NCBI RefSeq assembly: GCF_000247605.1
Contig: NC_016894.1
Span: 62,001-126,000 of the forward strand
Origin: Acetobacterium woodii DSM 1030
Lineage (GTDB): Bacteria > Bacillota > Clostridia > Eubacteriales > Eubacteriaceae
Direction of reading: 5' to 3'
Length of the DNA: 64,000 bases
Within the stretch, counting starts at the first letter, position 1. Each line of letters begins with the position of its first letter. Below the pieces are notes generated by a model. The model was not told where the DNA came from and did no database searches. It saw nothing but the letters and a program-made list of their open reading frames with translations. Shown piece by piece: positions 2,162 through 36,223 of this stretch. The position numbers and the translations under genes are program-made.

Positions 2162-2608
2162 ATGAAAATCATTTTTAAAACAGACCCCCAGATGGAAAAA
2201 AATACCGCCTTGATTTTTACACATCCCAACGAAAACGCTGTAAAAAATAAAATTGAAGCGCTGCTTGAGAAAAATCAAAAAAAAATCACCGCGATTAATG
2301 GGCTCAACAGCCGGAATATTCAAATTTCGATGGATTCAATTCTGGCCATTGAATCGGAGGAGCGAATGTGTAATTTGCGACTAAAAACGGGCGAGATGTA
2401 TTTGTATAAAAAGCGGTTGAAGGTTGCGGAAGCAGATTTTAGTGAGGATGGTTTCATCCGGATCAATAATCAGACGATGGTGAATATCCGGGAAGTCAAA
2501 GAATTTGTCAACACCACCAATGCCAGAATCGAAGTGACGTTGAGTGATGGCAGTCGATATTTTATCAGCAGATATTATATGAATGATTTTAGGAGGGCGT
2601 TATTATGA
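2162..2608 (+). CDS. LytTR-domain transcriptional regulator (no receiver domain)
   Basis: A 148-residue DNA-binding protein whose C-terminal ~100 residues form a LytTR domain: ILAIESEERMCNLRLKTGEMYLYKKRL, then FIRINNQTMVNIREVKEF, matching the family pattern of IxYIE...V.....Y....L followed by F.RiHRS.iVN...I. The N-terminal ~45 residues have no phospho-acceptor receiver domain. It starts behind AGGAGG and overlaps the next gene by 4 bp (ATGA). Stand-alone LytTR proteins encoded with a small membrane protein (for example HdrR/HdrM and BrsR/BrsM of Streptococcus) are restrained by that partner, which suggests the same here. Its target genes are not known. Confidence 0.88.
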   Translation: MKIIFKTDPQMEKNTALIFTHPNENAVKNKIEALLEKNQKKITAINGLNSRNIQISMDSILAIESEERMCNLRLKTGEMYLYKKRLKVAEADFSEDGFIRINNQTMVNIREVKEFVNTTNARIEVTLSDGSRYFISRYYMNDFRRALL

Positions 2609-3048
2609 TAAAAAATTTAAGAGCAGCGTTTTTTCAGGTATTTACGTTATCATTAATCTGGATTACAGTATTAATGACGGTATTTTTGAATGATCAGAGC
2701 ATTCGGATGACGTATCTTTGGAATGTTATCGGAATTGCGGCGATTTTGGGGCTGATGTTTGGGGTTCTCTACAGCGTTTTATGGAACTATCTGACACTTA
2801 AGCCGAGTATCAATATTCTGATTGCATCAGTTTTAAACATGCTTGGCGGTTTAACGGCAGTGCGGTTGTTTTCTTGGCAAATGTTTAATTTGATAGCACC
2901 ATGGATACCGGGGATGCTGATTTTGACCGTCATCCTTCATACCATTGCATTTTATCTTTATGCCCGGTTGGAGGCTCAAAAAAAAGCCGACGATTTGAAT
3001 GAATTGATAAAAAATAAAAAAGCGAATAACAGCGAGCGTAAAATTTAA
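2605..3048 (+). CDS. DUF3021 family membrane protein, partner of the LytTR regulator
   Basis: A 147-residue protein with four predicted membrane segments (about residues 12-28, 40-62, 70-92 and 99-118) and a charged, Lys-rich C-terminal tail (EAQKKADDLNELIKNKKANN). Length, topology and translational coupling to a stand-alone LytTR gene match the DUF3021 family. In related LytTR regulatory systems the membrane partner holds the regulator inactive; that role is inferred here. A hairpin just after the stop ends the unit. Confidence 0.8.
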   Translation: MIKNLRAAFFQVFTLSLIWITVLMTVFLNDQSIRMTYLWNVIGIAAILGLMFGVLYSVLWNYLTLKPSINILIASVLNMLGGLTAVRLFSWQMFNLIAPWIPGMLILTVILHTIAFYLYARLEAQKKADDLNELIKNKKANNSERKI

Positions 3049-20808: not shown

Positions 20809-20926
20809 GTCTCGCGACGATGGCGGAAGGGCCACACCTGTTCCCATACCGAACACAGAAGTAAAGTCTTCCAGCGCCGAAAGTACTTGGTGGGTAACTG
20901 CCTGGGAGGATAGGACGTTGCGGGAC
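20809..20926 (+). rRNA. rrf: 5S rRNA (orphan copy)
   Basis: 118 nt, apparently identical to the 5S gene at 31141-31258, with the canonical CCATACCGAACACAGAAGT core. The ends GTCTCGCGACG and CGTTGCGGGAC pair as helix I. There is no 16S or 23S gene beside it; it has its own rRNA-type promoter and is followed by a terminator-like hairpin. Boundaries are set by the helix I pairing and may be off by 1-2 nt. Confidence 0.93.
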
Positions 20927-20937
20927 TTTTATTTAAT

Positions 20938-21070
20938 GAAGCCGTGCAAAAAAATAGATTCATAATGAAAGATATAAGTTCACTTAATATCTTTCATTAT
21001 GAATCTATTTTTTTATGGGGCGAAGCCCCTAACGGAGGCGCAGCGATAGCGGAGACGGAGTTGCACGATT
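20938..21070 (+). repeat. Post-5S structured element (copy 1), including a terminator hairpin
   Basis: It begins with GAAGCCGTGCAA and ends near TTGCACG, an inverted terminal pair that is complete in copy 2 (GAAGCCGTGCAA...TTGCACGGCTTC). Inside are a long hairpin (20948-21014) around the central AAGTTCACTT, ending in T7 and so a likely terminator, then GGGGCGAAGCCCC and GGAGGCGCAGCGATAGCGGA. The middle of the stem differs completely from copy 2 yet stays paired. Confidence 0.7.
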
Positions 21071-21073
21071 TTG

Positions 21074-21205
21074 TCAATAAGTAGACGGAAGAGCTAGTGA
21101 AGGTGATTTCGTCGTTATTGAGGACGCTCCCAACCCAAAAATAAAGATAACACTAAGCCATCCTATTAACATTATCATGTACTTCTTTTGTTTGTCTTGT
21201 TTCAT
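21074..21205 (-). CDS. Small single-span membrane peptide (43 aa), unannotated type
   Basis: The minus strand encodes MKQDKQKKYMIMLIGWLSVI followed by FIFGLGASSITTKSPSLALP and STY. A basic N-terminus precedes one hydrophobic stretch (about residues 10-27) and a polar tail; it reads as a membrane or secreted micropeptide. GCGAGGA is 6 nt before ATG. About 40 bp further up lies TATAAT (21244-21249) preceded by the same 20-bp-period repeats found at three other promoters here. The 3' end abuts the post-5S element, so the tail may have been altered. Expression is inferred, not shown; a signal-peptide-derived pheromone is one possibility. Confidence 0.45.
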   Translation of the reverse strand: MKQDKQKKYMIMLIGWLSVIFIFGLGASSITTKSPSLALPSTY

Positions 21206-21243: not shown

Positions 21244-21303
21244 ATTATAGTAATTCAAGATTTAGAATCGAAAGTTGTTCACGAAGAAAATACGGCTTTC
21301 GCG
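21244..21303 (-). promoter_or_regulatory. LytTR-type repeat promoter A (for the 43-aa ORF)
   Basis: Read on the minus strand, CGCGAAA (21297-21303) and CGTGAAC (21277-21283) are spaced exactly 20 bp apart, and TATAAT (21244-21249) follows after 27 bp. There is no good -35 hexamer, as expected for an activator-dependent promoter. LytTR proteins bind pairs of ~9-bp direct repeats with about this period. Confidence 0.65.
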
Positions 21304-21373
21304 AAGAGGTTTTTTAGACAGTATTGATATCGGAGCCTACAAATTGATTAAATTGGGGTGATAATTTGGACAA

Positions 21374-21426
21374 AACAAAAAAAGGCTTCTGCATAACCGC
21401 TTGTTTCGCCGTTTTGCAAAAGCCTA
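21374..21426 (-). terminator. Intrinsic terminator of the lipoprotein gene
   Basis: On the minus strand AGGCTTTTGCAAAACGGC pairs with a downstream GGTTATGCAGAAGCCT, giving an imperfect stem that is followed by a run of T (seen as AAAAAAAA at 21368-21382 on the plus strand). It lies directly after the stop of the lipoprotein gene. Confidence 0.65.
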
Positions 21427-21437
21427 TTGTGACTTGC

Positions 21438-21848
21438 TTATTTAAATGTTGCAGTCGGACTGCCATTTTCAATTTTAAGAGTAATTTCTGAAATCGAGAA
21501 TAAATCGATATTTGACCATTCAACGGTTGCTCCAGTAGAGTCGGCAATCATTAAATCCCAGTATTGTTCTTCAACATCGGTGTCAAATGTAATTTCGGTT
21601 GAATTTCCGGTTGGCAGGGTATCGGTTGTTAAAATATCATCCCCCCAATTTGTTTCTCCAGTGGGTGAAACATAGATTGCATAAATTTCAATCCCGGTAT
21701 CATTAACGATTGTGAAATCTTGAGAATAAGTGGTTGCCGCATCTGAAGACGAAGAGTCTCCGGTCGAAGAGGAACCACCACACCCGGCGAAAATAAACAG
21801 GGATAAAACAAAAACGGCTAACAAACTAAGTAATTTCTTTTTTTTCAT
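21438..21848 (-). CDS. Small secreted lipoprotein
   Basis: 136 residues. The signal peptide MKKKKLLSLLAVFVLSLFIF ends in FAGC, a lipobox, followed by a Ser/Gly-rich linker and a compact beta-rich domain (FTIVNDTGIEIYAIYVSPTG, then NWGDDILTTDTLP). The text VNDTGxxIxxIYxSPxxxxxWGxDxL is typical of a small repeat domain seen in clostridial and cyanobacterial secreted proteins, of unknown function. AAGGAG supports ATG 21848; an upstream ATG in frame lacks a site. Promoter B with LytTR-type repeats is about 35 bp upstream. It is divergent from the AgrA-like regulator. Confidence 0.8.
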   Translation of the reverse strand: MKKKKLLSLLAVFVLSLFIFAGCGGSSSTGDSSSSDAATTYSQDFTIVNDTGIEIYAIYVSPTGETNWGDDILTTDTLPTGNSTEITFDTDVEEQYWDLMIADSTGATVEWSNIDLFSISEITLKIENGSPTATFK

Positions 21849-21883
21849 TTTTTTCTCCTTAAAGTTGAAGTTGTTATGCAATT

Positions 21884-21944
21884 ATGATAACAACAATCAG
21901 CGCTTAAAACAATTAAAACTCACGAGAGAAAATGACGTTTTGCG
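21884..21944 (-). promoter_or_regulatory. LytTR-type repeat promoter B (for the lipoprotein)
   Basis: On the minus strand, CGCAAAA (21938-21944) and CGTGAGT (21918-21924) are 20 bp apart, followed after 28 bp by TATCAT (21884-21889). This is the weakest of the four sites by sequence but has identical geometry and lies 36 bp from the lipoprotein start. It sits in the gap shared with the divergent AgrA-like regulator gene. Confidence 0.6.
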
Positions 21945-22029
21945 AAATAACTAGCTGCTTTAAAATTGAAATATTTGATACAATATGATAAAATAAAAAT
22001 ATATAGTCAATCAACAATTGGAGGGCATA

Positions 22030-22764
22030 ATGGTCTGGATTGGGGTATGCGAAGATGAAAAAGAACAGCAGGAGATAATTGGTGCTTATATAAAAAAATA
22101 TGCAGCAGTAAATTGTTGTGATTTTAACCTCTCTTTTTTTTGTTCGGCTGATGAATTTTGGGAACATTATCAGATTGGTACATTCGATATTATTTTTTTG
22201 GATATTTATTTAGCGGCGGCCAACGGAATTGAGATTGCAAAAAAGCTACGAAACTTAGGCGAGAAGTGCGCCATTGTATTTACGACATCAAGTAGAGATT
22301 ATGCGATCGAAGGGTTTGAGTTAAAGGCGCAACACTATTTAATAAAACCAATAACCGAAGAAAAAATTTTTGAAGCATTAGCACGTTGCCAGGAGTTATA
22401 TGGGGATGATTTAAAATACATTCGCATTACAAATGGAAAGCTTGAAGTTGATATCTATCTTAAAGATATCATTTATATCGAAGTTTTTAATAAGGTGTCG
22501 ATCATTCATACTGTCCGCGACGAAATAAAGACCTATATCCCATTAGCTCAATTGGAACAGCAATTAGGTGGGTCGCCCTTTTTACGTTGCCACCGCTGTA
22601 ATATTATAAATATGAACTTTGTAAAAGATTATACCTCTTCAGATTTTATAATGAAAAATGGCGATGTGGTAGCGATTCCGAGAAGCAAGAGTGTGGCTGT
22701 TCGACAGAAATATTTGAACTTCATTTTCACAAAAGTTAGAGGTGAAGATGATGTTAAACACTAA
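22030..22764 (+). CDS. AgrA/VirR-like LytTR response regulator
   Basis: 244 residues. The receiver domain (about 1-120) has the acidic pocket CEDEKE and phospho-acceptor Asp in FDIIFLDIYLAAANG. The LytTR domain (about 135-240) has KYIRITNGKLEVDIYLKDII, YIEVFNK, then FLRCHRCNIINMNFVK and AIPRSK. The start is ATG 22030 with GGAGG 5-9 nt upstream. The stop lies inside the start of the kinase gene. It is the natural candidate for binding the four repeat promoters nearby. Confidence 0.93.
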   Translation: MVWIGVCEDEKEQQEIIGAYIKKYAAVNCCDFNLSFFCSADEFWEHYQIGTFDIIFLDIYLAAANGIEIAKKLRNLGEKCAIVFTTSSRDYAIEGFELKAQHYLIKPITEEKIFEALARCQELYGDDLKYIRITNGKLEVDIYLKDIIYIEVFNKVSIIHTVRDEIKTYIPLAQLEQQLGGSPFLRCHRCNIINMNFVKDYTSSDFIMKNGDVVAIPRSKSVAVRQKYLNFIFTKVRGEDDVKH

Positions 22765-24094
22765 TTTGAATATTGTTTGGGGGATTTTTCTCTCTATTTG
22801 CCCTTATTTTGTTTTGGCATTCATACCGGTATGGGAGCAACTGCGATATTCAAAAAAAACAGTGGTGATGATTGGGCTGCTATGTATGCTTCTTAATACT
22901 GTTTCAGTTATTCTGATCATCACATGGTTACCCGATTGGAACAATTTGCGCTTTTTTCATAGTGCCTTTTTCTTATTAGTATATCTCGTGGTATATACGG
23001 TAATGGTACAGGGGACACCTTTAAAACTCATGTTTGTTGCCTTGCTGGTGAAAAGTTATGCTGATTTTATAGTCAATATGGCAAAGTTTTTTGAGATTTA
23101 TTACATTAATCACGTACTGAATCAAGTCTATGTGCATAGTTCGTATTCTTTTTATTTTAATCTATTTCAATGTTTGATTTTATTGATCAGCTATCCTTTG
23201 ATTTGGATTTTCTTCAGAAAAAAAATATCGCAGGTAATGCAGACAAATAACAAAGCCTGGCGATACTTATGGATTATTCCTTTGGTATATTATGTTATCA
23301 GCCTGGCCTTTGCGGCGATGGATTTTACGTTGATCGCGCAATGGCAATTTTTATTATTTAATATCGCATCGTTTTTGGGATTTAACCTCATCTATTATGT
23401 TGTTATCGAAATGTTGGAACAATCAGAAAAGAATGTTTTTTTGACTGCGAACAATGAGCTGATTAAGCAGCAGTTGGTATATCAGTCCGATTATTACAAA
23501 AAATTTGGAGCGTGTATTGAAGAAACAAGAAAAGGTGAACATGATTTAAGACACCATCTGAATACTGTCCTGGGATTGATTCAACAAAAGAATAATGAGA
23601 AAGTTGAACAATACATAGCTGAGTTGTTGGGAAATCGATTGAGTATTTCAGATGTTTTATATTGTCGAAATGATGCGGTTAATGCTATCTTAGGTTATTA
23701 TGTCAATGCCTGCAAACAAGAAGGCATTGATTTTTCAATTGCAACAAAAGTACCCAACGATTTAGAAATAGACGAAACGGATTTATGTGTTATATTTGGA
23801 AACATTCTGGAAAATGCTTTGGAAGCCTGTCGAAAAATAACAAATGCAAATAAATTTATAAAAATATCATCCCAGTTTTTAAATAATAAGTTATATATTA
23901 CCGTGGACAATAGTTTTGAAGGGCCGTTGAAATTAAAGAATGGCATCTACCTATCCCAGAAAAGAGAAGCGGAAGCTGGGATTGGGATGTTATCAGTAAT
24001 GGGGATGGCGAAAAAATATAGTGGGGAAGCCTCTTTTCAGGTAGTTGATAAGACTTTTTGCGTATCGATTTTTTTGAATAATAAATCAAATTGA
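22751..24094 (+). CDS. AgrC-like membrane histidine kinase (HPK10 type)
   Basis: About 447 residues. Six or seven hydrophobic segments fill residues ~5-230, then a dimerisation helix with the phospho-acceptor His in HDLRHHLNTVLGLIQQ, and a GHKL ATPase domain with NILENALEACRK and GIGMLSVMGMAKKY. This is the layout of peptide-sensing AgrC/ComD-type kinases. ATG 22751 is preferred, 7 nt after AGAGGTG; GTG 22742 is also in frame. No agrB/agrD pair is visible around it, so the signal is unknown. Confidence 0.9.
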   Translation: MLNTNLNIVWGIFLSICPYFVLAFIPVWEQLRYSKKTVVMIGLLCMLLNTVSVILIITWLPDWNNLRFFHSAFFLLVYLVVYTVMVQGTPLKLMFVALLVKSYADFIVNMAKFFEIYYINHVLNQVYVHSSYSFYFNLFQCLILLISYPLIWIFFRKKISQVMQTNNKAWRYLWIIPLVYYVISLAFAAMDFTLIAQWQFLLFNIASFLGFNLIYYVVIEMLEQSEKNVFLTANNELIKQQLVYQSDYYKKFGACIEETRKGEHDLRHHLNTVLGLIQQKNNEKVEQYIAELLGNRLSISDVLYCRNDAVNAILGYYVNACKQEGIDFSIATKVPNDLEIDETDLCVIFGNILENALEACRKITNANKFIKISSQFLNNKLYITVDNSFEGPLKLKNGIYLSQKREAEAGIGMLSVMGMAKKYSGEASFQVVDKTFCVSIFLNNKSN

Positions 24095-24102
24095 GAAACA
24101 GT

Positions 24103-24140
24103 TCCAGAGCAGTGAAAAAGTGATTTTTTTACTGCTCTGG
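24103..24140. terminator. Bidirectional intrinsic terminator
   Basis: CCAGAGCAGT (24103-24112) and ACTGCTCTGG (24131-24140) form the stem base, extended by AAAA/TTTT pairing. It lies between the kinase gene and the convergent gene at 24215. Confidence 0.75.
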
Positions 24141-24214
24141 ACATATTATAATCGAACGGGGGCTTGGTCGACTTGATAGAGCCGTTATAAAGATGATTTT
24201 TTGATTTCAAGCAG

Positions 24215-24619
24215 CTAGTTCAACAGCCCTTTTAGTTCGCACAGTTTTGTCAGTTCATTACCAACGATACGTGTCAGTTGATTCAAATCAATGTTTTCAC
24301 CGTTTAATGCATTATACCAACCGCCAGTTACGGCATCACCAACGGTTTCTTTGAGGATACCGCCAACACCGCTGTAGACTTTTGTGATAGTAACAGTGGT
24401 TCCGCTGAGTGCTACCTGGATGACATATTTATCAACTGGTGGAAATTTGATGCAACGCATCATGCCTTTCCCGGTTAGTTGCGGTTCGCCACAAGGGTAG
24501 GTCCCTTCTCTCATCACCTCGTAGAGATCATCATAGGTTAACTTTTTATTGAGCTTCACCTTGTCATAGCTTTTGATCATATCTTTGCTTCCTTGTTTGA
24601 ATTTATCAAATAATCCCAT
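24215..24619 (-). CDS. Hypothetical protein, 134 aa
   Basis: Begins MGLFDKFKQGSKDMIKSYDK, an amphipathic helix, and continues with a compact alpha/beta domain (GTYPCGEPQLTGKGMMRCIK, VIQVALSGTTVTITKVYSG). No signal peptide or clear membrane span; GVGGILKETVGDAVTGGWYN is glycine-rich. I do not recognise a family. GAAGGAG precedes ATG. Its upstream region holds promoter C with LytTR-type repeats, linking it by regulation to the lipoprotein and the surface protein. Confidence 0.7.
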   Translation of the reverse strand: MGLFDKFKQGSKDMIKSYDKVKLNKKLTYDDLYEVMREGTYPCGEPQLTGKGMMRCIKFPPVDKYVIQVALSGTTVTITKVYSGVGGILKETVGDAVTGGWYNALNGENIDLNQLTRIVGNELTKLCELKGLLN

Positions 24620-24681
24620 TGCAAATTCTCCTTCATATAAAGTCTTTTGGATAGTTTGACCATCCTTTTTAGTCTAACAAG

Positions 24682-24742
24682 ATTCTATCAAGATCATTGA
24701 TGAAGTTCAATTACCGTTCACGTCGAAAAATCATTGTTCACG
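24682..24742 (-). promoter_or_regulatory. LytTR-type repeat promoter C (for the 24.2-kb gene)
   Basis: On the minus strand, CGTGAAC (24736-24742) and CGTGAAC (24716-24722) are identical 7-mers 20 bp apart; TAGAAT (24682-24687) follows after 28 bp, 63 bp from the ATG. The plus-strand reading CCGTTCACG and TTGTTCACG resembles the published VirR/AgrA half-site pattern. Confidence 0.68.
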
Positions 24743-24918
24743 AAATTTGAGTCTAAAGAATTGAAAGAAAACGCAACTGAATCAAATTTGAGATTTAAAA
24801 CGAGACGTCAAAATAAGGATAAAAATAATATTAGTAAACTGATTAATTAAAGCATACTACGGTATAATTAAAAATAATAATCACGATACGATAATTAAAA
24901 AGAAAGCAGGTATAGTTA

Positions 24919-25761
24919 ATGAAAGAAAGAAAAGTTACCCAAGTTATTCAAGGGATGAAGGCAGTGGACGGCGCTGGGGTTCATTTGACCCGGGTTTTAT
25001 CGCATCAAACAGTAAAAGATTTTGATCCTTTTCTGATGCTTGATTCTTTTGACTCCGAAAATCCTCAGGATTATATTAAAGGATTTCCAATGCACCCGCA
25101 TCGGGGCATTGAAACAGTTACTTATCTGGTGAAAGGACTGATTGAACATCAGGACAGCCTGGGAAATAAAGGTGTTATTGAGTCCGGTTGTTCGCAATGG
25201 ATGACCGGGGGCAGCGGAATTTTGCATCAGGAAATGCCTCAGGCCTGCGAAAGAATGTTGGGTTTTCAGTTATGGCTGAATTTGCCGAAGTCTGAAAAAA
25301 TGACAAAACCCAAATATTTTGAAATCAGAAGTGAAAATATTCCGTTATATAAAGGAAATGGATTTTCTGTTGGGGTGATATCAGGAGCCTATGAGTCCAT
25401 TAAAGGCGCTGAACCACATCATATTCAGGCGACAATTTTAGATGTTAGTGTTGAAGCCGGACAATCGGTTGAAATACCGACTCAAAAAGGGGAAACCGTA
25501 TTTGTGTTTTTAATAGAAGGTCAAGCAGTAGTATCGGGAAACTTATATCAGGAAAAATCAGCGCTCCTGTTTGATGAAGGCGATTTAATTAAAGTAAAAG
25601 CCAATGATAAAGGCCTTCGCTTTGCCATGTTTTCAGCACCGCCACTTCATGAATCGGTGGCTTGGGGCGGACCCATCGTCATGAATACCGAAGCGGAATT
25701 AAGACAAGCCTTTGCCGAATTAGAAGAAGGAACCTTTATAAAAGAGCAACCGAAACTTTAA
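24919..25761 (+). CDS. Pirin family protein (cupin)
   Basis: 280 residues. FPMHPHRGIETVTYLVKGLI carries the N-terminal cupin metal ligands (HPHRGIET), with HQDSLGNKG, WMTGGSGILHQEMP and FQLWLNLP following in the order of pirins. The C-terminal cupin ends with SAPPLHESVAWGGPIVMNT. Bacterial pirins are iron-binding cytoplasmic proteins; some have quercetinase activity, but the physiological role is usually unknown. GCAGG is a modest ribosome site. It stands alone upstream of the rrn operon. Confidence 0.93.
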   Translation: MKERKVTQVIQGMKAVDGAGVHLTRVLSHQTVKDFDPFLMLDSFDSENPQDYIKGFPMHPHRGIETVTYLVKGLIEHQDSLGNKGVIESGCSQWMTGGSGILHQEMPQACERMLGFQLWLNLPKSEKMTKPKYFEIRSENIPLYKGNGFSVGVISGAYESIKGAEPHHIQATILDVSVEAGQSVEIPTQKGETVFVFLIEGQAVVSGNLYQEKSALLFDEGDLIKVKANDKGLRFAMFSAPPLHESVAWGGPIVMNTEAELRQAFAELEEGTFIKEQPKL

Positions 25762-25942
25762 CTAAAGCTATCACTGCAAATAAAGGATCTTGAATCATTA
25801 TGAAATGTGGTAGGTAGAAATAAAATTGGAGGGGTCTGACCATTTATCAGTGTGAATAAAGCGTTAAAAGTCCGTAATCAGCGGGAGTTAAAGCGGATTA
25901 CGGGCAAAAATGAAAAAAGTTAATAAAAAGATGAAAAAGGAG

Positions 25943-25971
25943 TTGACAGGAAGGCTGAAAGCGCGTATACT
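25943..25971 (+). promoter_or_regulatory. rrn promoter P1
   Basis: TTGACA (25943-25948) and TATACT (25966-25971) with a 17-bp spacer, a near-perfect sigma-A promoter about 330 bp upstream of 16S. The downstream text CTAATGAAGTTG is shared with the orphan 5S promoter. Confidence 0.88.
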
Positions 25972-26050
25972 AATGAAGTTGTCTCGAACAGGGGCGACGG
26001 TCACACAGCTGAATCACTGAAATGAACTTAAAAGAATTTCAAAAAACAGC

Positions 26051-26079
26051 TTGACAACATGAAGAAACAACGATATAAT
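26051..26079 (+). promoter_or_regulatory. rrn promoter P2
   Basis: TTGACA (26051-26056) and TATAAT (26074-26079) with a 17-bp spacer: a perfect consensus. It lies 108 bp after P1, giving the tandem arrangement usual for rRNA operons. Confidence 0.9.
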
Positions 26080-26123
26080 AGAAAAGCTTCTTCGGTCGGG
26101 AAACGATTGCAGAGCGGCGGTCA

Positions 26124-26144
26124 TAGAAAAGAGAATAGTACCAT
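26124..26144 (+). other. 5' half of the pre-16S processing stem
   Basis: AAAAGAGAATAGTACCAT (26127-26144) is complementary to ATGGTACTATTTTCTTTT just after 16S (27844-27861), with one mismatch. The long helix closing the 16S precursor is the standard RNase III substrate. Confidence 0.75.
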
Positions 26145-26300
26145 AAAACCTGTAAAACAGCCAAAACATCCGTAAGGATGGAGGCGGCTAAAATAGAAAC
26201 AGAGAGATGCACTCTTAAAAACATTAACTCGGTAGAGGATAAATTACAGTTATTCAAATGAGACAGCATTTAAAAGCCAAACGGCTTTAAATACAAACTT

Positions 26301-30897
<4,597 letters not shown>

Positions 30898-30989
30898 AGA
30901 TTTTATACACTATGCTGTTTCGAGTGATCGATTTGTCCGATTGATTTGTCGGATTTTTGATAGATCATGAAAAACAACTGAATAAACAT

Positions 30990-31140
30990 AGACAAGTAGG
31001 AACAAGGATCATCAATTGCTGTAAAAATTTTTTAAAAGAAAATGGATAATTTTTACAACAATTGATGGACCATTTAGCCGGATCAACCGCTAACGCTCCT
31101 TTGAACCTATTTGTTTTTTAGCAAAAACAAAGCTAAATGA
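30990..31140 (+). other. 23S-5S spacer with hairpin (copy 2 of the 5S leader)
   Basis: ATCAATTGCTGTAAAAATT (31011-31029) pairs with 31048-31066 except at one position. Flanks CAAGTAGGAACAAGGATC and TAGCCGGATCAACCGC are nearly the same as in the orphan 5S leader, while the stem is different. It probably guides release or folding of 5S precursor RNA. Confidence 0.65.
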
Positions 31141-31258
31141 GTCTCGCGACGATGGCGGAAGGGCCACACCTGTTCCCATACCGAACACAGAAGTAAAGTC
31201 TTCCAGCGCCGAAAGTACTTGGTGGGTAACTGCCTGGGAGGATAGGACGTTGCGGGAC
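31141..31258 (+). rRNA. rrf: 5S rRNA (rrn operon copy)
   Basis: 118 nt, same sequence as the orphan copy at 20.8 kb. Helix I ends GTCTCGCGACG and CGTTGCGGGAC pair. It is the last gene of the 16S-23S-5S operon and is followed 10 nt later by the post-5S structured element. Confidence 0.95.
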
Positions 31259-31268
31259 TTTTTTTAAT

Positions 31269-31400
31269 GAAGCCGTGCAAAAAAATAGATAGATAAGTAT
31301 TGATTAAGTTCACTTAAATCAATACTTATCTATCTATTTTTTTATGGGGCGAAGCCCCTAACGGAGGCGTAGTGAAACGGAGACGGAGTTGCACGGCTTC
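31269..31400 (+). repeat. Post-5S structured element (copy 2, complete)
   Basis: 132 bp with perfect 12-bp inverted ends GAAGCCGTGCAA and TTGCACGGCTTC. The long hairpin 31279-31345 (ATAGATAGATAAGTATTGAT and its complement around AAGTTCACTT) ends with T7 and should terminate the rrn operon. GGGGCGAAGCCCC follows. Compared with copy 1, loop, flanks and GC hairpin are conserved while the stem centre is replaced by a different paired sequence. Confidence 0.75.
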
Positions 31401-31482
31401 ATGAAACGGCAGTGTATTTACACGCCATCTGGCGACTGACGCGACGGAGGCGTAGCGTTAGCTACGCCTCCGTGTCGCATGA
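31298..31482 (+). repeat. 185-bp unit, first copy of a tandem duplication
   Basis: Bases 31298-31482 recur at 31512-31696, an offset of 214 bp. The unit includes the 3' half of the terminator hairpin, GGGGCGAAGCCCC, the right terminal repeat, ATTTACACGCCATCTGGCGA and the hairpin GCGACGGAGGCGTAGC/GCTACGCCTCCGTGTCGC. In this copy the last hairpin is almost perfect. Confidence 0.75.
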
Positions 31483-31511
31483 ACGAGTAAAACGGTAGTG
31501 AATTAACGAGA

Positions 31512-31696
31512 TATTGATTAAGTTCACTTAAATCAATACTTATCTATCTATTTTTTTATGGGGCGAAGCCCCTAACGGAGGCGCAGTGAAACGGAGACGG
31601 AGTTGCACGGCTTCATGAAACGGCGGTGCATTTACACGCCATCTGGCGACTGACGCGACGGAAGCGCAGCGTTAGCTACGCCGCAGTGTCGCATGA
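31512..31696 (+). repeat. 185-bp unit, second copy of the tandem duplication
   Basis: It nearly matches 31298-31482. It lacks the left arm of the long hairpin, so the terminator here would have only the apical stem, and its final hairpin has decayed (GCGACGGAAGCGCAGC against GCTACGCCGCAGTGTCGC). No reading frame runs through either copy. Confidence 0.75.
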
Positions 31697-31723
31697 TTAA
31701 TGGCAAAAAGGGAAAAAGCATTT

Positions 31724-31784
31724 CGTGAATAAGCGAATTTCTTCGTGAATAGATGTTTGAATATAGTTTGTAAGCTGTTATAAT
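31724..31784 (+). promoter_or_regulatory. LytTR-type repeat promoter D (for the surface protein)
   Basis: CGTGAAT (31724-31730) and CGTGAAT (31744-31750) are identical and 20 bp apart; TATAAT (31779-31784) follows after 28 bp. The start codon is 78 bp further on. Orientation and spacing match promoters A to C. Confidence 0.7.
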
Positions 31785-31861
31785 CTATAATTGTTGATAG
31801 AAAATATCATAAAAAACGCTATGATCGCATTAGATAGTGCCATATGCACAAGGAGTATAAC

Positions 31862-34800
31862 ATGAAAAAATTGATATTTGCATTATTTCTTTTCTGTTTG
31901 ATCAGTCCGATTCATGCAGTCGTTGCTGCACCTGTCGATAACACCTTAACGGTTCTTTCACGGGGACATATTCAGGATTTAGGTGATTTTCCTCAGGATG
32001 GCTCATGGGTGGAAAGTCCTGAGCGCATCGGTACTGTTGGGCAAAGCAAGCGGATTGAAGGTTTTGAGATAAAGCCCGGCATAAATCTGCCATCGGATAT
32101 ACAGATCTACTACAACGTTCATGTTCAGAACAGAGGCTGGCTCTATGATGAAGAAAATCCCACCACTTGGGCTAAAAATGGCGAATATGCTGGAACCCGG
32201 GGAGAATCGTTGCGGATTGAAGCGATTAAAATTGTGATACTTGACGCATCTGGCAACAAAGCCACGGGTTACCATATTTATTATCAGGGACATGTTCAGA
32301 ACGTTGGGGACTTGCCGGCTGATTCAGAGAAGTGGATCAAGGATGGCGAAACATTGGGAACTGTCGGCAGTTCACTGCGCCTGGAAGCGTTGAAGCTTGA
32401 GATCATCAGAGATACTTCAAATGACGTCGATTTAAGTGCTTATAATGGCTTGACTAAAAAGATTGAAAGTTTCAATGAAGCAGATTATACCAAAGAATCT
32501 TGGGCTAAACTCCAAATGGCGATAAAACAAAATGTCGTCACTGGTAAGAATACCCAGAAAGAAGTTGATGCAGCAGTAAAAATGGTTGAAACAGCGATTG
32601 CTCAGCTCGAGAATTTGACTACATCCACCGTTTATGACAAAGCAGGTACCTATGGGCCGGCAAGCGGTATGGAAACCATCAATCAGGACGTGATTATTAC
32701 ATCCCGAGATGTGACCCTCCAAAACCTGAAAGTTGAGGGCGATTTGATTATTGACGAAGCCGTTGGCGATGGGAATGTGACCTTGAACAATATTAACGTA
32801 TCCGGAGAGTTGCGGGTGCGTGGTGGTGGTCAGAATAGTATCCATATCAATGGCGGGGATTATTCAAAAATTCTGGTAGAGCAGGCGCCGGATGGCGGGG
32901 TGCGGATTGTGGCCACTAATCTGCAAGGCGTTCCGGTTGTGCTCAGTGAGGATGCCGCTGGGGAAACCCTGATTTTAGAAGGCAGCTTTGATTCAGTGAC
33001 CGTTTCGGCACCGGATGTAGTGATTAAAACCCAAGGTCAGACCAGTATAAAAACTTTCGATGTCGATGCCATTGCCCAAAATGCGGCCATCAATTTGGGT
33101 GCCAACACCCAGGTAACAAACCTGTCCTTATCAGCTCCGGCCCAGGTAACCGGGACGGGAACCGTAGATAAAGCCGAGATTGCATCAGACAACGTCAGTT
33201 TTGAAAAAGCGCCTGTTTACTATGATGTCGATCCCAAAGTGGCGGTGCCGCCGGTGATTCCCACGCCGCAGCCAGAGCCTACACCGCAACCTGGTGGCGG
33301 CTATACGCCGCCCAGTAAAATCACTCTGAGTGTTAACGCTAATAGCCTGCCAGCCATTGCCCCAAAAACTTACGATGGCACTACCGCTGTTTATGACAGC
33401 GCCAATGTGAAAATATCAGCTTACCCCATTGACGCTGCTGGCATTACCGGGATTGTTTCCGGCGATGACGTATCAGTTTTAGCAACGGCCAATTATAACA
33501 ATAAAAACGCCGGCACCGATAAAACCGTCACCTATACCTACAGCCTCTCGGGTGCGCAGGCCGATAAGTACAGCTTGTCGGGAACGACAAAAATTGAGAA
33601 CTGCATTATTACTCAAAAACAGCTAAGCCAGCCTCCAATTCCAACTGTTACCAAGGTATTTGACGGCAGCACCACCCAAGATACCACGCTTACTGATAAT
33701 ATTGGGCAGGTTGCCACGGATGCCCTGACCATTACTCAAACGGCTACCTACCAGAATAGTCCCGGGAGTACCAAGGATGCCATCGAAGTGGGCAACGGCA
33801 AAAAGGTTAATTGCACCTATCAGTTAAGCGGTGCGGATGCATCCAACTATATGGCACCAACAGCTCAAACGGGAACCGGTAGCGTCACCCCAAAAATACT
33901 CAATTTCTCTTGGGCAAATAACTTTAAAGAAAAGTATGGCGAAGTGGCAAAAAACAAGAGCTATGACGGCAATACGAAGGTCTTAGATGGTAAGGGAAAT
34001 TACATTAGTGTGACTACTAGCGTTAATTTTGACACCGGTGTTGCCGGTGACACGGCAATTGTTGTGACCGCCGTCGCCAGCTATGACAATAAAAATGCCG
34101 GCAGTGACAAAACCATCACGATAACCTATATCATCGCTGGTTCGGATTCATCGTCACGCTACCAGATTGCCCCAGAAACGATTAATCAGGCCAGTATTGC
34201 TAAACGGCAGATGACGGTGGCTGAGGCAAATGTTCCCAAACCGATGGCCAAAATCTATGACGGCACCACGGTTGTTTTTGATAATACCAGCCCAATATCA
34301 AATAAAGTAGTAACTCCGGACAATGCGATTTCAGCTGATAAAGTGACGCTTGTAGCCAATGCCAGTTATGTCAATGCCGATGCGGAGGTAAACAAGCCGG
34401 TGACCATCAGTTATAAGTTGACCGAGGGGGCGGAGAATTATCTGCCCCCGAAGAATACCACGGCAGCCGCTACGATTACGCCGCTGGCTCTGAACACCAA
34501 AGTGATACCAACCCTGGCGAAAGAATATGACGGAACCAGCGCTGCGACGGTAAATTTGGCGTTTACAGCAAGCGATCCAACAATCGTTGAGCTTATTAAA
34601 CAGAATCAGATTAGACTTGACGTAACCTCTGCGGTTTATAAAGGCAGCAATGGTGCAGAAATCAGCGCCGTCGGCAGCGGTTACACCATTACCTACGCAT
34701 ATAAACTAAGTGGAGATAATGCGAGGAATTTTGCCCTTGTTGGTGCAGAAACCAGCGGTGTGATTAGCGGGATGGTAAAGGATGGCAGCATCATCCCAAA

Positions 34801-36223
34801 AACCCTGACCATCACTCCACCCAGTATTAAAACTTTCCGGGACTACGATGGTACGTCCAATGTTTACGACACCAGTGGAAACTCAATCGCCTCCTCATAC
34901 CCCATTGAGCCGGCACAAATTACCGGGGTGGCCGATCAAGACAGTATCGCTGTGATAGCTAACATGACTGGTGCTGGCAAAGATGCAGGAACTCAACAGA
35001 TCACTATCACTTATAGTTGGTTAAACAGCGCTGACGCAAATTATCTGCTGCCTACTCCCCAGCTCATCACGGTTACGATCAACCCGTTACCACTGACAGT
35101 TGCCGCCAATAATGTGCCAGCGGTAGATGCAACCAAAAAATATGATGGCACCACGGCAACCAATGTGATTAATAAATCTGTTGCAGTCAGCGGGGTATTG
35201 TCTGACGATACGACTAAAGTCAGCGCCACCGCTACCGCCACTTATACCGATAAAAGCGTTGGCAGCGCCAAGGCCATCACCATCATATACAGCCTGACTG
35301 GTGATGCGGCTAAAAATTATCAGGTTCCGGCTGAAGATACGACTAAAAAAGCGGCAATTACCCCGAGAATTCTGGGTTATAGCAATATCGTTTTGAATAC
35401 GGTAAAAAAAGCGGATAAAACCAGCGAGGTTAATGTTGTTTCAGCAGAAGTCGATCCTACAAAAGCTACTTCAGGAACCGACGGGGTCGTTTACAACTCC
35501 GGCGATGAAGACAAGCTGACGCTCAGCTGCAGCGCTAATTATTATGACGGCGATAATAAAACCAGTACAATCGGCTCGCATCCGATCATACTCTCTGGAA
35601 CTCTGTCTGGTGACGAGGCTGGCAATTACGTGATGATTGATAATTACACATACGGAAATGGTGAGATTCTTGCAGACAATGCGGTAATCACGGCAACATA
35701 TAATGGCATATGGAGTAGCTGGAGCAGTGCTGGAGCGATCTTAACTCCACCAACCGGCGTGTCAAATTTTACACTCTTTTATAAAGACAGCAGCAACTAT
35801 TACGGGATGGGCAGCGACGGAAAAATCTACCAGGCGACGAATTTAACGAACTGGAGTCAGTACACCAGTAGCTCTGTAGTGGGTAGTGATAATTTATCAA
35901 CCAGCAACCATCTAATTGGGATTGACGCTAATGGCAACCCGTTGGCAATTGATGCTGGCGGCAAGTTGTATATTTGGGTCAATGGATGGGGAGTGGATGG
36001 AACAGTACCCAACGTGTCAAATCCGATTAATCCCACCTATTATTCTGATGGATCTAACCAATATCTGATTTATCAGGATGCTGTCGGGATGGTTTATCAG
36101 ACGAATTTAGCGTATGGCAGTCCAGCCTCAATTGCCAATCAGCCTATCCCGACCCTGCTCACTGGCTTCAGTCATACTCTGTTGGTCTATAACGGTACGG
36201 CCCCAACAATCTACGCCTACTAG
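31862..36223 (+). CDS. Large secreted surface protein with ChW, FIVAR-like, beta-helix and YDG repeats
   Basis: 1453 residues. Signal peptide at 1-23 (MKKLIFALFLFCLISPIHAV). Three clostridial hydrophobic-W (ChW) repeats follow to about 165 (HIQDLGDF, HVQNRGWL and HVQNVGDLP, each followed by G..G..G.S.R.E). Next are a FIVAR-like helical unit (about 190-255), a beta-helix-like region (to about 440), a Pro linker (PTPQPEPTPQPGGG), then at least seven YDG-type repeats (KTYDGTTAVYD, KVFDGST, KSYDGNT, KIYDGTT, KEYDGTS, RDYDGTS, KKYDGTT) and a C-terminal Trp/Tyr-rich domain. No LPxTG or SLH motif, so ChW repeats may anchor it. AAGGAG precedes ATG 31862. Likely an adhesin or matrix protein. Confidence 0.9.
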   Translation: MKKLIFALFLFCLISPIHAVVAAPVDNTLTVLSRGHIQDLGDFPQDGSWVESPERIGTVGQSKRIEGFEIKPGINLPSDIQIYYNVHVQNRGWLYDEENPTTWAKNGEYAGTRGESLRIEAIKIVILDASGNKATGYHIYYQGHVQNVGDLPADSEKWIKDGETLGTVGSSLRLEALKLEIIRDTSNDVDLSAYNGLTKKIESFNEADYTKESWAKLQMAIKQNVVTGKNTQKEVDAAVKMVETAIAQLENLTTSTVYDKAGTYGPASGMETINQDVIITSRDVTLQNLKVEGDLIIDEAVGDGNVTLNNINVSGELRVRGGGQNSIHINGGDYSKILVEQAPDGGVRIVATNLQGVPVVLSEDAAGETLILEGSFDSVTVSAPDVVIKTQGQTSIKTFDVDAIAQNAAINLGANTQVTNLSLSAPAQVTGTGTVDKAEIASDNVSFEKAPVYYDVDPKVAVPPVIPTPQPEPTPQPGGGYTPPSKITLSVNANSLPAIAPKTYDGTTAVYDSANVKISAYPIDAAGITGIVSGDDVSVLATANYNNKNAGTDKTVTYTYSLSGAQADKYSLSGTTKIENCIITQKQLSQPPIPTVTKVFDGSTTQDTTLTDNIGQVATDALTITQTATYQNSPGSTKDAIEVGNGKKVNCTYQLSGADASNYMAPTAQTGTGSVTPKILNFSWANNFKEKYGEVAKNKSYDGNTKVLDGKGNYISVTTSVNFDTGVAGDTAIVVTAVASYDNKNAGSDKTITITYIIAGSDSSSRYQIAPETINQASIAKRQMTVAEANVPKPMAKIYDGTTVVFDNTSPISNKVVTPDNAISADKVTLVANASYVNADAEVNKPVTISYKLTEGAENYLPPKNTTAAATITPLALNTKVIPTLAKEYDGTSAATVNLAFTASDPTIVELIKQNQIRLDVTSAVYKGSNGAEISAVGSGYTITYAYKLSGDNARNFALVGAETSGVISGMVKDGSIIPKTLTITPPSIKTFRDYDGTSNVYDTSGNSIASSYPIEPAQITGVADQDSIAVIANMTGAGKDAGTQQITITYSWLNSADANYLLPTPQLITVTINPLPLTVAANNVPAVDATKKYDGTTATNVINKSVAVSGVLSDDTTKVSATATATYTDKSVGSAKAITIIYSLTGDAAKNYQVPAEDTTKKAAITPRILGYSNIVLNTVKKADKTSEVNVVSAEVDPTKATSGTDGVVYNSGDEDKLTLSCSANYYDGDNKTSTIGSHPIILSGTLSGDEAGNYVMIDNYTYGNGEILADNAVITATYNGIWSSWSSAGAILTPPTGVSNFTLFYKDSSNYYGMGSDGKIYQATNLTNWSQYTSSSVVGSDNLSTSNHLIGIDANGNPLAIDAGGKLYIWVNGWGVDGTVPNVSNPINPTYYSDGSNQYLIYQDAVGMVYQTNLAYGSPASIANQPIPTLLTGFSHTLLVYNGTAPTIYAY

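What the first reader, a model, noticed from the sequence alone, without database searches (positions are those of the whole stretch)
21244..31784. Four promoters with one architecture: 20-bp-period CGTGAA repeats and a fixed distance to the -10 box, around an AgrA-like regulator
Direct observation: pairs of near-identical heptamers (CGTGAAC/CGTGAAT, weaker in B) occur at 21277/21297, 21918/21938, 24716/24736 and 31724/31744, always exactly 20 bp apart, in the same orientation relative to the next gene, and followed after 27, 28, 28 and 28 bp by TATAAT, TATCAT, TAGAAT and TATAAT. None has a good -35 box. Known: LytTR activators bind two direct half-sites about two helical turns apart next to weak promoters. 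Inference: the AgrA-like protein at 22030-22764 controls a regulon made of a 43-aa membrane peptide, a lipoprotein, an unknown protein and a giant ChW/YDG surface protein, even though the rrn operon now lies inside the cluster.
Basis: partly seen in the sequence, partly recalled or inferred. Interest (0 to 1): 0.78.

Follow-up and report, generated by a model that had tools for sequence, protein, structure and literature searches.

The report
Shared control switch for surface-protein genes
Four genes beside a sensor-regulator pair in an acetate-producing bacterium carry the same on-switch sequence, and related species carry that switch in front of the same kinds of gene even where these lie far apart, which points to a small shared control circuit for cell-surface proteins.

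Summary
In the 4.04-Mb genome, a site model built only from other genomes' promoters ranks sites B, C, D and A first (E 1.8e-11 to 1.2e-3; fifth hit 0.089). In 19 genomes of the genus (Acetobacterium), a 73-position model (two TCGYGAAY boxes, 20-bp period, T-tract, TTG at -35, extended -10) gives 37 hits at E<=4.3e-4. All 37 precede one of four gene families: a lipoprotein (13), a small protein C (12), a ChW/YDG surface protein (8), a second ChW/YDG protein (4). Targets can lie far from the regulator; in G013 lipoprotein, C, ChW protein, regulator and kinase form one cluster behind one site. Best explanation: the LytTR regulator (22030-22764), paired with the neighbouring GHKL kinase, binds the boxes just upstream of a weak -35 and activates these promoters; its own promoter looks ordinary. 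Binding and activation are inferred. Corrections: the '43-aa membrane peptide' is probably the signal-peptide stub of a broken ChW gene, and this genome has four sites, not many. Against: complete genome G010 keeps two sites without this regulator or kinase. A new member of a known kind.

The parts
21244..21303 (-). Site A: boxes CGCGAAA 21297-21303 and CGTGAAC 21277-21283, -10 TATAAT 21244-21249; promoter of the 43-aa ORF
   Evidence: held-out genome model E 1.2e-3
21074..21205 (-). 43-aa ORF: probable signal-peptide stub of a broken ChW/YDG surface-protein gene (ChW2)
   Evidence: local DNA alignments to the start of ChW2 in L055, L084 and L155, ending after about 24 codons or fewer
21438..21848 (-). 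lipoprotein, 136 aa, mature part predicted all-beta; target of site B
   Evidence: orthologue in 13 of 19 genus genomes, 13 of 13 with a site; model mean pLDDT 75; lipobox read by eye
21884..21944 (-). Site B: boxes CGCAAAA 21938-21944 and CGTGAGT 21918-21924, -10 TATCAT 21884-21889 with TG
   Evidence: held-out model E 1.8e-11
21966..21994 (+). Promoter of the regulator gene: TTGAAA-17 bp-TAAAAT, without a box pair facing it
   Evidence: same TTGnnn-17-TAnAAT form in 11 of 13 upstream regions, window included
22030..22764 (+). LytTR response regulator, 244 aa; presumed activator
   Evidence: Pfam PF00072 + PF04397; D58 and FLRCHRC invariant in 13 sequences, window included
22748..24094 (+). 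GHKL sensor kinase, 448 aa, about six hydrophobic segments
   Evidence: PF14501; hydropathy; orthologue (>=55% identity, two of them fragments) in 16 of 19 genus genomes
24215..24619 (-). Gene C: 134-aa protein without a Pfam or NCBIfam match; target of site C
   Evidence: found in 14 of 40 family genomes, all 14 in this genus
24682..24742 (-). Site C: boxes CGTGAAC 24736-24742 and 24716-24722, -10 TAGAAT 24682-24687 with TG
   Evidence: held-out model E 6.2e-9
31724..31784 (+). Site D: boxes CGTGAAT 31724-31730 and 31744-31750, -10 TATAAT 31779-31784 with TG
   Evidence: held-out model E 9.7e-6
31844..36223 (+). ChW/YDG surface protein, 1459 aa from the first ATG (the ATG six codons later is a likelier start); target of site D
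   Evidence: PF07538 three stretches, PF18657 six stretches

Best explanation
This is the regulon of a LytTR/GHKL two-component system of Acetobacterium. The kinase (22748-24094) senses an unknown envelope or extracellular signal and phosphorylates the regulator (22030-22764). The regulator binds, probably as a head-to-tail dimer on one DNA face, two TCGYGAAY boxes with a 20-bp period; the promoter-proximal box ends 5 bp before a weak -35 (TTGnnn), which is followed by an extended -10 (TGnTAnnAT). There it recruits RNA polymerase and switches on a lipoprotein, a genus-specific small protein (C) and a ChW/YDG wall protein, plus a second ChW gene that is here reduced to a stub. Regulator and kinase are made from an ordinary promoter. 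Shown: the sites, their architecture, their restriction to four gene families in the genus, and the clustering with the regulator. Inferred: that this regulator is the binder, dimer binding, activation, phosphorylation control, and the signal.
For: Held-out model: the top four places in 4.04 Mb are the four sites. Genus scan: 37 hits at E<=4.3e-4, 37 of 37 before the same four gene families; 13 of the 37 were not in the training set. Lipoprotein: 13 of 13 orthologues have the site. Gene C: 12 of 14 have their own; one is second in the G013 cluster and one (G002) has an altered 5' end. Distance: in single-contig G002 the ChW target lies about 967 kb from regulator and lipoprotein; in draft genomes G004, G016 and G018 targets are on other contigs. 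In G013 lipoprotein-C-ChW-regulator-kinase are consecutive on one strand behind one site. Site B stands between divergent lipoprotein and regulator genes in 11 of the 13 genomes with the lipoprotein. Best -10 at 27-28 bp in 36 of 37 sites, 5.3% at random positions; in the 14 target hits found by the box pattern alone it is 14 of 14. In G016 the lipoprotein is gone and what remains of the site has decayed (one box changed, spacer one base shorter than in G017, -10 side missing) while the regulator promoter beside it keeps its form. FLRCHRC and D58 invariant in 13 sequences. Known LytTR repeats (9-bp units, 11-13 bp between, 4-11 bp before the -35 in S. mutans) have the same layout (PMC6193735, passages).
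Against: G010, a single-contig genome rated 99% complete, has two sites (gene C and a broken ChW2) but no regulator, kinase or lipoprotein orthologue. G012 (85% complete) has regulator and kinase but no detected site; it also lacks lipoprotein and C, and the N-terminal part of its ChW gene was not found there. Kinase against sites in 19 genomes gives only p=0.05. Genus-wide the box pattern alone gave 17 hits against 11 reversed controls, so it is the place of the hits, not their number, that speaks. In G021, of another genus, a box-like stretch (model E 0.0011; matrix score 26.3, as high as some accepted sites) stands 218 bp before an unrelated ORF. ChW relatives close to D, e.g. the 77% one in G004, lack the site. 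The boxes do not match the classical LytTR consensus (recalled) and are nearly palindromic (TTCGCGAA), so their orientation is open. Six other LytTR domains exist in the genome. R1 and R2 include the -10 region. No binding or expression data.
Confidence: 0.76

Rival explanations
1. Another DNA-binding protein (another LytTR regulator, or an HTH dimer reading the near-palindromic TTCGYGAA boxes) controls these promoters; the neighbouring LytTR pair is linked by chance or is only one of several inputs.
For: G010 keeps two good sites without this regulator; six other LytTR domains in the genome; boxes are almost palindromic.
Against: Site B lies between lipoprotein and regulator in 11 of 13 genomes; targets and regulator cluster in G013 and in the window; G001 and G007 lack regulator, kinase, sites, lipoprotein and C together; a 20-22-bp direct-repeat layout is described for LytTR proteins.
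Confidence: 0.17
2. The regulator represses rather than activates these promoters.
For: LytTR proteins can repress: AgrA at bsaA, from a site immediately downstream of the promoter (passage in PMC4227749).
Against: The boxes lie wholly upstream of the -35 at a fixed distance, and the -35 is only TTGnnn; repressor sites usually overlap the core promoter (general knowledge).
Confidence: 0.12
3. The repeats are chance, or only the shared ancestry of duplicated promoters without regulatory meaning.
For: Bare heptamer pairs are at chance level in the window; 17 pattern hits against 11 controls in the genus.
Against: 37 of 37 model hits stand before four gene families in 16 genomes; conserved columns concentrate in boxes, T-tract, TTG and -10; decay of the site in G016 after loss of its gene.
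Confidence: 0.02

Closest known systems
Staphylococcus aureus AgrA at agr P2/P3
   Same: receiver-LytTR regulator; dimer on direct repeats upstream of promoters with a suboptimal core, repeats centred at about -60 (PMC4227749, passages). Here the pair would centre near -54 if the -10 ends at -7 (my calculation).
   Different: no AgrB/AgrD gene recognised beside the pair (AgrB not searched for); box sequence differs; spacer here is 17 bp with extended -10, agr P2 and P3 have 18 and 20 bp; regulator far below NCBIfam's AgrA cut-off
Streptococcus mutans HdrRM/BrsRM-type LytTR regulatory systems
   Same: 9-bp direct repeats separated mostly by 12 bp (11 or 13 in a minority), 4-11 bp upstream of the -35; HdrR promoter with an extended -10 (PMC6193735, passages)
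   Different: those use a membrane inhibitor protein and are autoregulated; here a receiver domain and a kinase exist, and the regulator's own promoter has no box pair facing it
Other LytTR regulators next to ChW proteins in the genus (e.g. L108 in G010)
   Same: ChW protein, LytTR regulator and a 464-aa ORF in a row
   Different: regulator 35% identical; no site of the present type found in L108

Membership tests
LytTR-controlled direct-repeat promoter | regulator with a LytTR domain | tested here: met
   PF04397 56.6 bits, cut-off 22.6
LytTR-controlled direct-repeat promoter | two direct boxes with a period of 20-22 bp just upstream of the -35 | tested here: met
   period 20 at all 37 sites (the matrix is ungapped, so partly by construction); box ends 5 bp before TTGnnn; comparison values from PMC6193735 passages
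LytTR-controlled direct-repeat promoter | conserved LytTR motif FhRhHRS | tested here: inconclusive
   FLRCHRC, invariant in 13 sequences; the last S is C; motif as given in PMC4227749 (passage)
LytTR-controlled direct-repeat promoter | classical box consensus with a GTT core (recalled) | tested here: not met
   boxes read TCGYGAAY, compared by eye; PMC6193735 reports low sequence conservation of such repeats, so LytTR binding is not excluded
LytTR-controlled direct-repeat promoter | demonstrated binding of the regulator | not testable with these tools
   needs EMSA or footprint
Agr quorum-sensing system | AgrA equivalog score | tested here: not met
   33.6 bits against a cut-off of 400
Agr quorum-sensing system | GHKL kinase beside the regulator | tested here: met
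   PF14501
Agr quorum-sensing system | AgrB and AgrD genes | not tested
   none recognised among the neighbouring ORFs that I read; no search for AgrB or AgrD was run

The most novel reading that the evidence does not exclude
A regulon caught in the act of dispersal: an operon (lipoprotein-C-ChW-regulator-kinase, as in G013) broke up within one genus, and each fragment that moved away carried or acquired its own copy of the same 61-bp two-box promoter, so that operon linkage was replaced by operator linkage; sites decay when their gene is lost (G016), and orphaned sites persist for a while when the regulator is lost (G010). The boxes would also be a LytTR recognition sequence of a new, near-palindromic type.
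Probability: 0.35. Interest if true: 0.6.

Novelty: new member of a known kind. Interest (0 to 1): 0.5.

Why it matters
It gives a two-component system of model acetogens a likely operator and a target set. I saw no report of this in six searches that bear on it (listings only, in an open-access library that lacks most subscription papers). It makes predictions for giant ChW/YDG surface proteins, whose control is, to my knowledge, little studied, and offers a compact natural series (cluster, dispersal, gene loss with site decay, regulator loss) for how an operon may turn into a regulon.

Tried and rejected
Bare heptamer-pair statistics are at chance level and are not used as evidence. Site search beyond the genus (21 of its 40 genomes lie outside the genus): best 5.6e-4 (G024, no matrix hit above 12 in L087/L109) and 0.0011 (G021, before an unrelated ORF); with gene C absent from those 21 the regulon looks limited to this genus. 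ChW paralogues as further targets: of eight upstream regions fetched (L147-L153, L157), one, G014's L147, showed a weak site (matrix score 22.7) and seven none; the ChW family as a whole is not in the regulon. Structure of gene C: mean pLDDT 60, not searched. Lipoprotein model (pLDDT 75): no PDB match at E<=0.001; best 2mca, E 1.4e-3; weaker beta-rich matches, some to toxin domains, are below threshold and carry no meaning. PMC6222199 concerns an OmpR-type regulator (passages). A crude search for other 20-22-bp repeats at three other loci gave nothing convincing. The R1 hits beyond E 4.3e-4 (0.002 and worse, mostly partial matches) were not followed up.
Full report
WHERE. The window is G000:C1:62001-126000 of a 4,044,777-bp single-contig genome. 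The size equals that of Acetobacterium woodii DSM 1030 (recalled). Nine named records hold gene C relatives, among them A. tundrae, A. paludosum, A. wieringae and A. dehalogenans; equal contig lengths tie these to G015, G005, G016 and G004.

THE OBSERVATION. All four box pairs, their 20-bp period, orientation and the 27/28/28/28-bp distance to the -10 boxes are there. C and D have identical boxes; A (CGCGAAA/CGTGAAC) and B (CGCAAAA/CGTGAGT) are weaker. Heptamer pairs of this looseness alone are at chance level in the window (13 found, 13.6 expected). With the pattern TTCGTGAAY-N11-TTCGTGAAY and up to 2 mismatches the whole genome has 3 hits, D, A and C, against 1 reversed control. The nine further hits with 3 mismatches are at background (12 in all against 10 controls).

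TEST ACROSS THE GENUS. The same pattern (<=2 mismatches) in 19 genus genomes gave 17 hits in 10 genomes, against 11 reversed controls. By number this is little; by place it is not: 14 of the 17 stand before the lipoprotein, gene C, a ChW gene or the stub, and 3 (L048, L054, L056) do not. A sequence-only model R1 of 24 aligned sites including the -10 then gave 37 hits at E<=4.3e-4 (150 candidates scored per genome): 13 before the lipoprotein, 12 before gene C, 8 before the ChW/YDG giant, 4 before a second ChW/YDG gene (ChW2, including site A). Genes were assigned from downstream ORFs and orthologue coordinates. 13 of the 37 were not used in building R1, and all 13 fall into the same four families. 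The next hits (E 0.002 and worse) I did not follow. A second model R2, built from 31 sites with none from this genome, finds here B (1.8e-11), C (6.2e-9), D (9.7e-6), A (1.2e-3), then 0.089. Orthologous promoters share descent and the first seeds came from the window, so this is a held-out test of place, not an independent discovery.

ARCHITECTURE. The same 37 sites: boxes TCGYGAAY, a T-tract before the second box, best -10 at 28 bp (33) or 27 bp (3); in one (L086) the best lies at 33 bp, though TAAACT stands at 28. Random positions give 27/28 in 5.3%. R1 includes the -10, which favours this count; the 14 target hits found by the boxes alone have it 14 of 14 times. TTG starts where a -35 with a 17-bp spacer would start in 27 of 37, and TG precedes the -10 in 28 of 37. 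So the -35 is half kept rather than absent. If the -10 ends at -7, the boxes centre near -64 and -44.

REGULATOR. 22030-22764 has a receiver and a LytTR domain; D58, T86, K106 and FLRCHRC are invariant in 13 sequences (window and 12 relatives of 52-83% identity). The kinase has a GHKL ATPase domain and about six hydrophobic segments. Neither reaches an NCBIfam cut-off in the rows shown (25 of 67 rows shown for the regulator). The regulator's own promoter is TTGAAA-17-TAAAAT at 21966-21994, with the same form in 11 of 13 regions and no box pair facing it, although a protein on site B would sit upstream of it too.

LINKING SITES TO REGULATOR. Site B stands between divergent lipoprotein and regulator genes in 11 of 13 genomes with the lipoprotein; in G006 both lie near contig ends, and in G013 lipoprotein, C, ChW giant, regulator and kinase follow each other on one strand, with one site, before the lipoprotein. 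In G012 a ChW gene without its usual N-terminal part precedes regulator and kinase in similar surroundings, without lipoprotein and C. In single-contig G002 the ChW target lies about 967 kb from the regulator. G001 and G007 lack regulator orthologue, kinase, sites, lipoprotein and C. In G011 no regulator orthologue was found, but kinase pieces begin at a contig start. G016 has lost the lipoprotein; what remains of its site has degenerated (one box changed, spacer one base shorter than in its near relative G017, -10 side gone), while the regulator promoter in the same gap keeps its form. Against: G010 has two sites and no regulator or kinase orthologue. Kinase against sites in 19 genomes: 15 both, 1 kinase only (G012), 1 site only (G010), 2 neither; Fisher p=0.05. 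Few genomes lack the system, so this test is weak. In 21 family genomes outside the genus there is no gene C, the best site hits are 5.6e-4 and 0.0011, and kinase relatives in the listing are at most 32% identical. The 0.0011 hit (G021) has box-like sequence with a matrix score of 26.3 before an unrelated ORF, a reminder that isolated matches occur.

TARGETS. Lipoprotein: 136 aa, mature part predicted all-beta; no significant solved relative. Gene C: no Pfam or NCBIfam match, found in 14 of 40 family genomes, all of this genus; 12 of the 14 have their own site, G013's is inside the cluster, and G002's has an altered 5' end and no site in L158. ChW giant: ChW and YDG repeats. The genome has 11 matches to its N-terminal part, itself included, and other ChW genes examined mostly lack the site, so only part of the ChW family is in the regulon. 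The 43-aa ORF: a 90-bp DNA alignment with ChW2 of G018 (L055) covers its ribosome-binding site and first 24 codons; shorter or gapped alignments exist with L084 and L155; beyond that there is no homology. The ORF ends just before an intergenic repeat that recurs near 31549-31610. ChW2 is also broken in G009 (a draft, so an assembly error is possible) and G010. I read the ORF as a stub; a short exported peptide cannot be excluded.

MECHANISM. LytTR activators are described as binding direct repeats about two turns apart just upstream of the -35 (PMC6193735 and PMC4227749, passages seen). The present layout (9-bp boxes 11 bp apart, ending 5 bp before the -35, weak -35, extended -10) fits activation by contact with RNA polymerase. 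Activation, phosphorylation and the signal are inferred. The gene set (lipoprotein, wall-binding giant) suggests an envelope or surface-remodelling response.

NOVELTY. A LytTR two-component regulon is a known kind. This member, its operator and its targets did not appear in six searches of the open library (listings and starts of abstracts only). The one paper naming both A. woodii and LytTR (PMC12044746) was seen as a listing only. After rechecking I lowered the main confidence slightly (0.78 to 0.76) because the genus-wide pattern control is 11, not negligible, and because of the G021 match.

Noticed in passing
2162-3048: A short LytTR protein (148 aa, PF04397) directly followed by a 147-aa protein without a Pfam match that looks hydrophobic: resembles an HdrRM-type LytTR regulatory system.
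   Followed up: partly
20810-20926: A 5S rRNA gene without 16S or 23S beside it in the window, next to the ChW2 stub; a full rrn operon is at 26300-31258. This may mark an rRNA-mediated rearrangement.
   Followed up: no
21008-21070 and 31549-31610: Similar GC-rich intergenic stretches (GGGGCGAAGCCCCTAACGGAGGCGCAG...) follow both 5S genes; a long inverted repeat at about 20948-21015 looks like a two-way terminator.
   Followed up: no
L108:211-4420 (G010:C1:2434000-2440000): Another ChW protein directly before a different LytTR regulator and a 464-aa ORF; some other ChW matches in the genus also lie close to regulator matches.
   Followed up: partly
L148 (G004:C20:1500-4500): The closest relative of the window's ChW giant (77% over its N-terminal part) shows no site of this type but follows a kinase with a receiver domain and a receiver/Trans_reg_C regulator: possible change of regulator between paralogues.
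   Followed up: partly
L155 and L154: ChW2 genes broken in G010 and G009 behind conserved promoters; with the window's stub, 3 of the 4 copies found behind a site are broken.
   Followed up: partly
24919-25761: Pirin-like protein (recalled from its HPHRGIETVTY stretch, not searched), divergent from gene C with site C lying between them.
   Followed up: no
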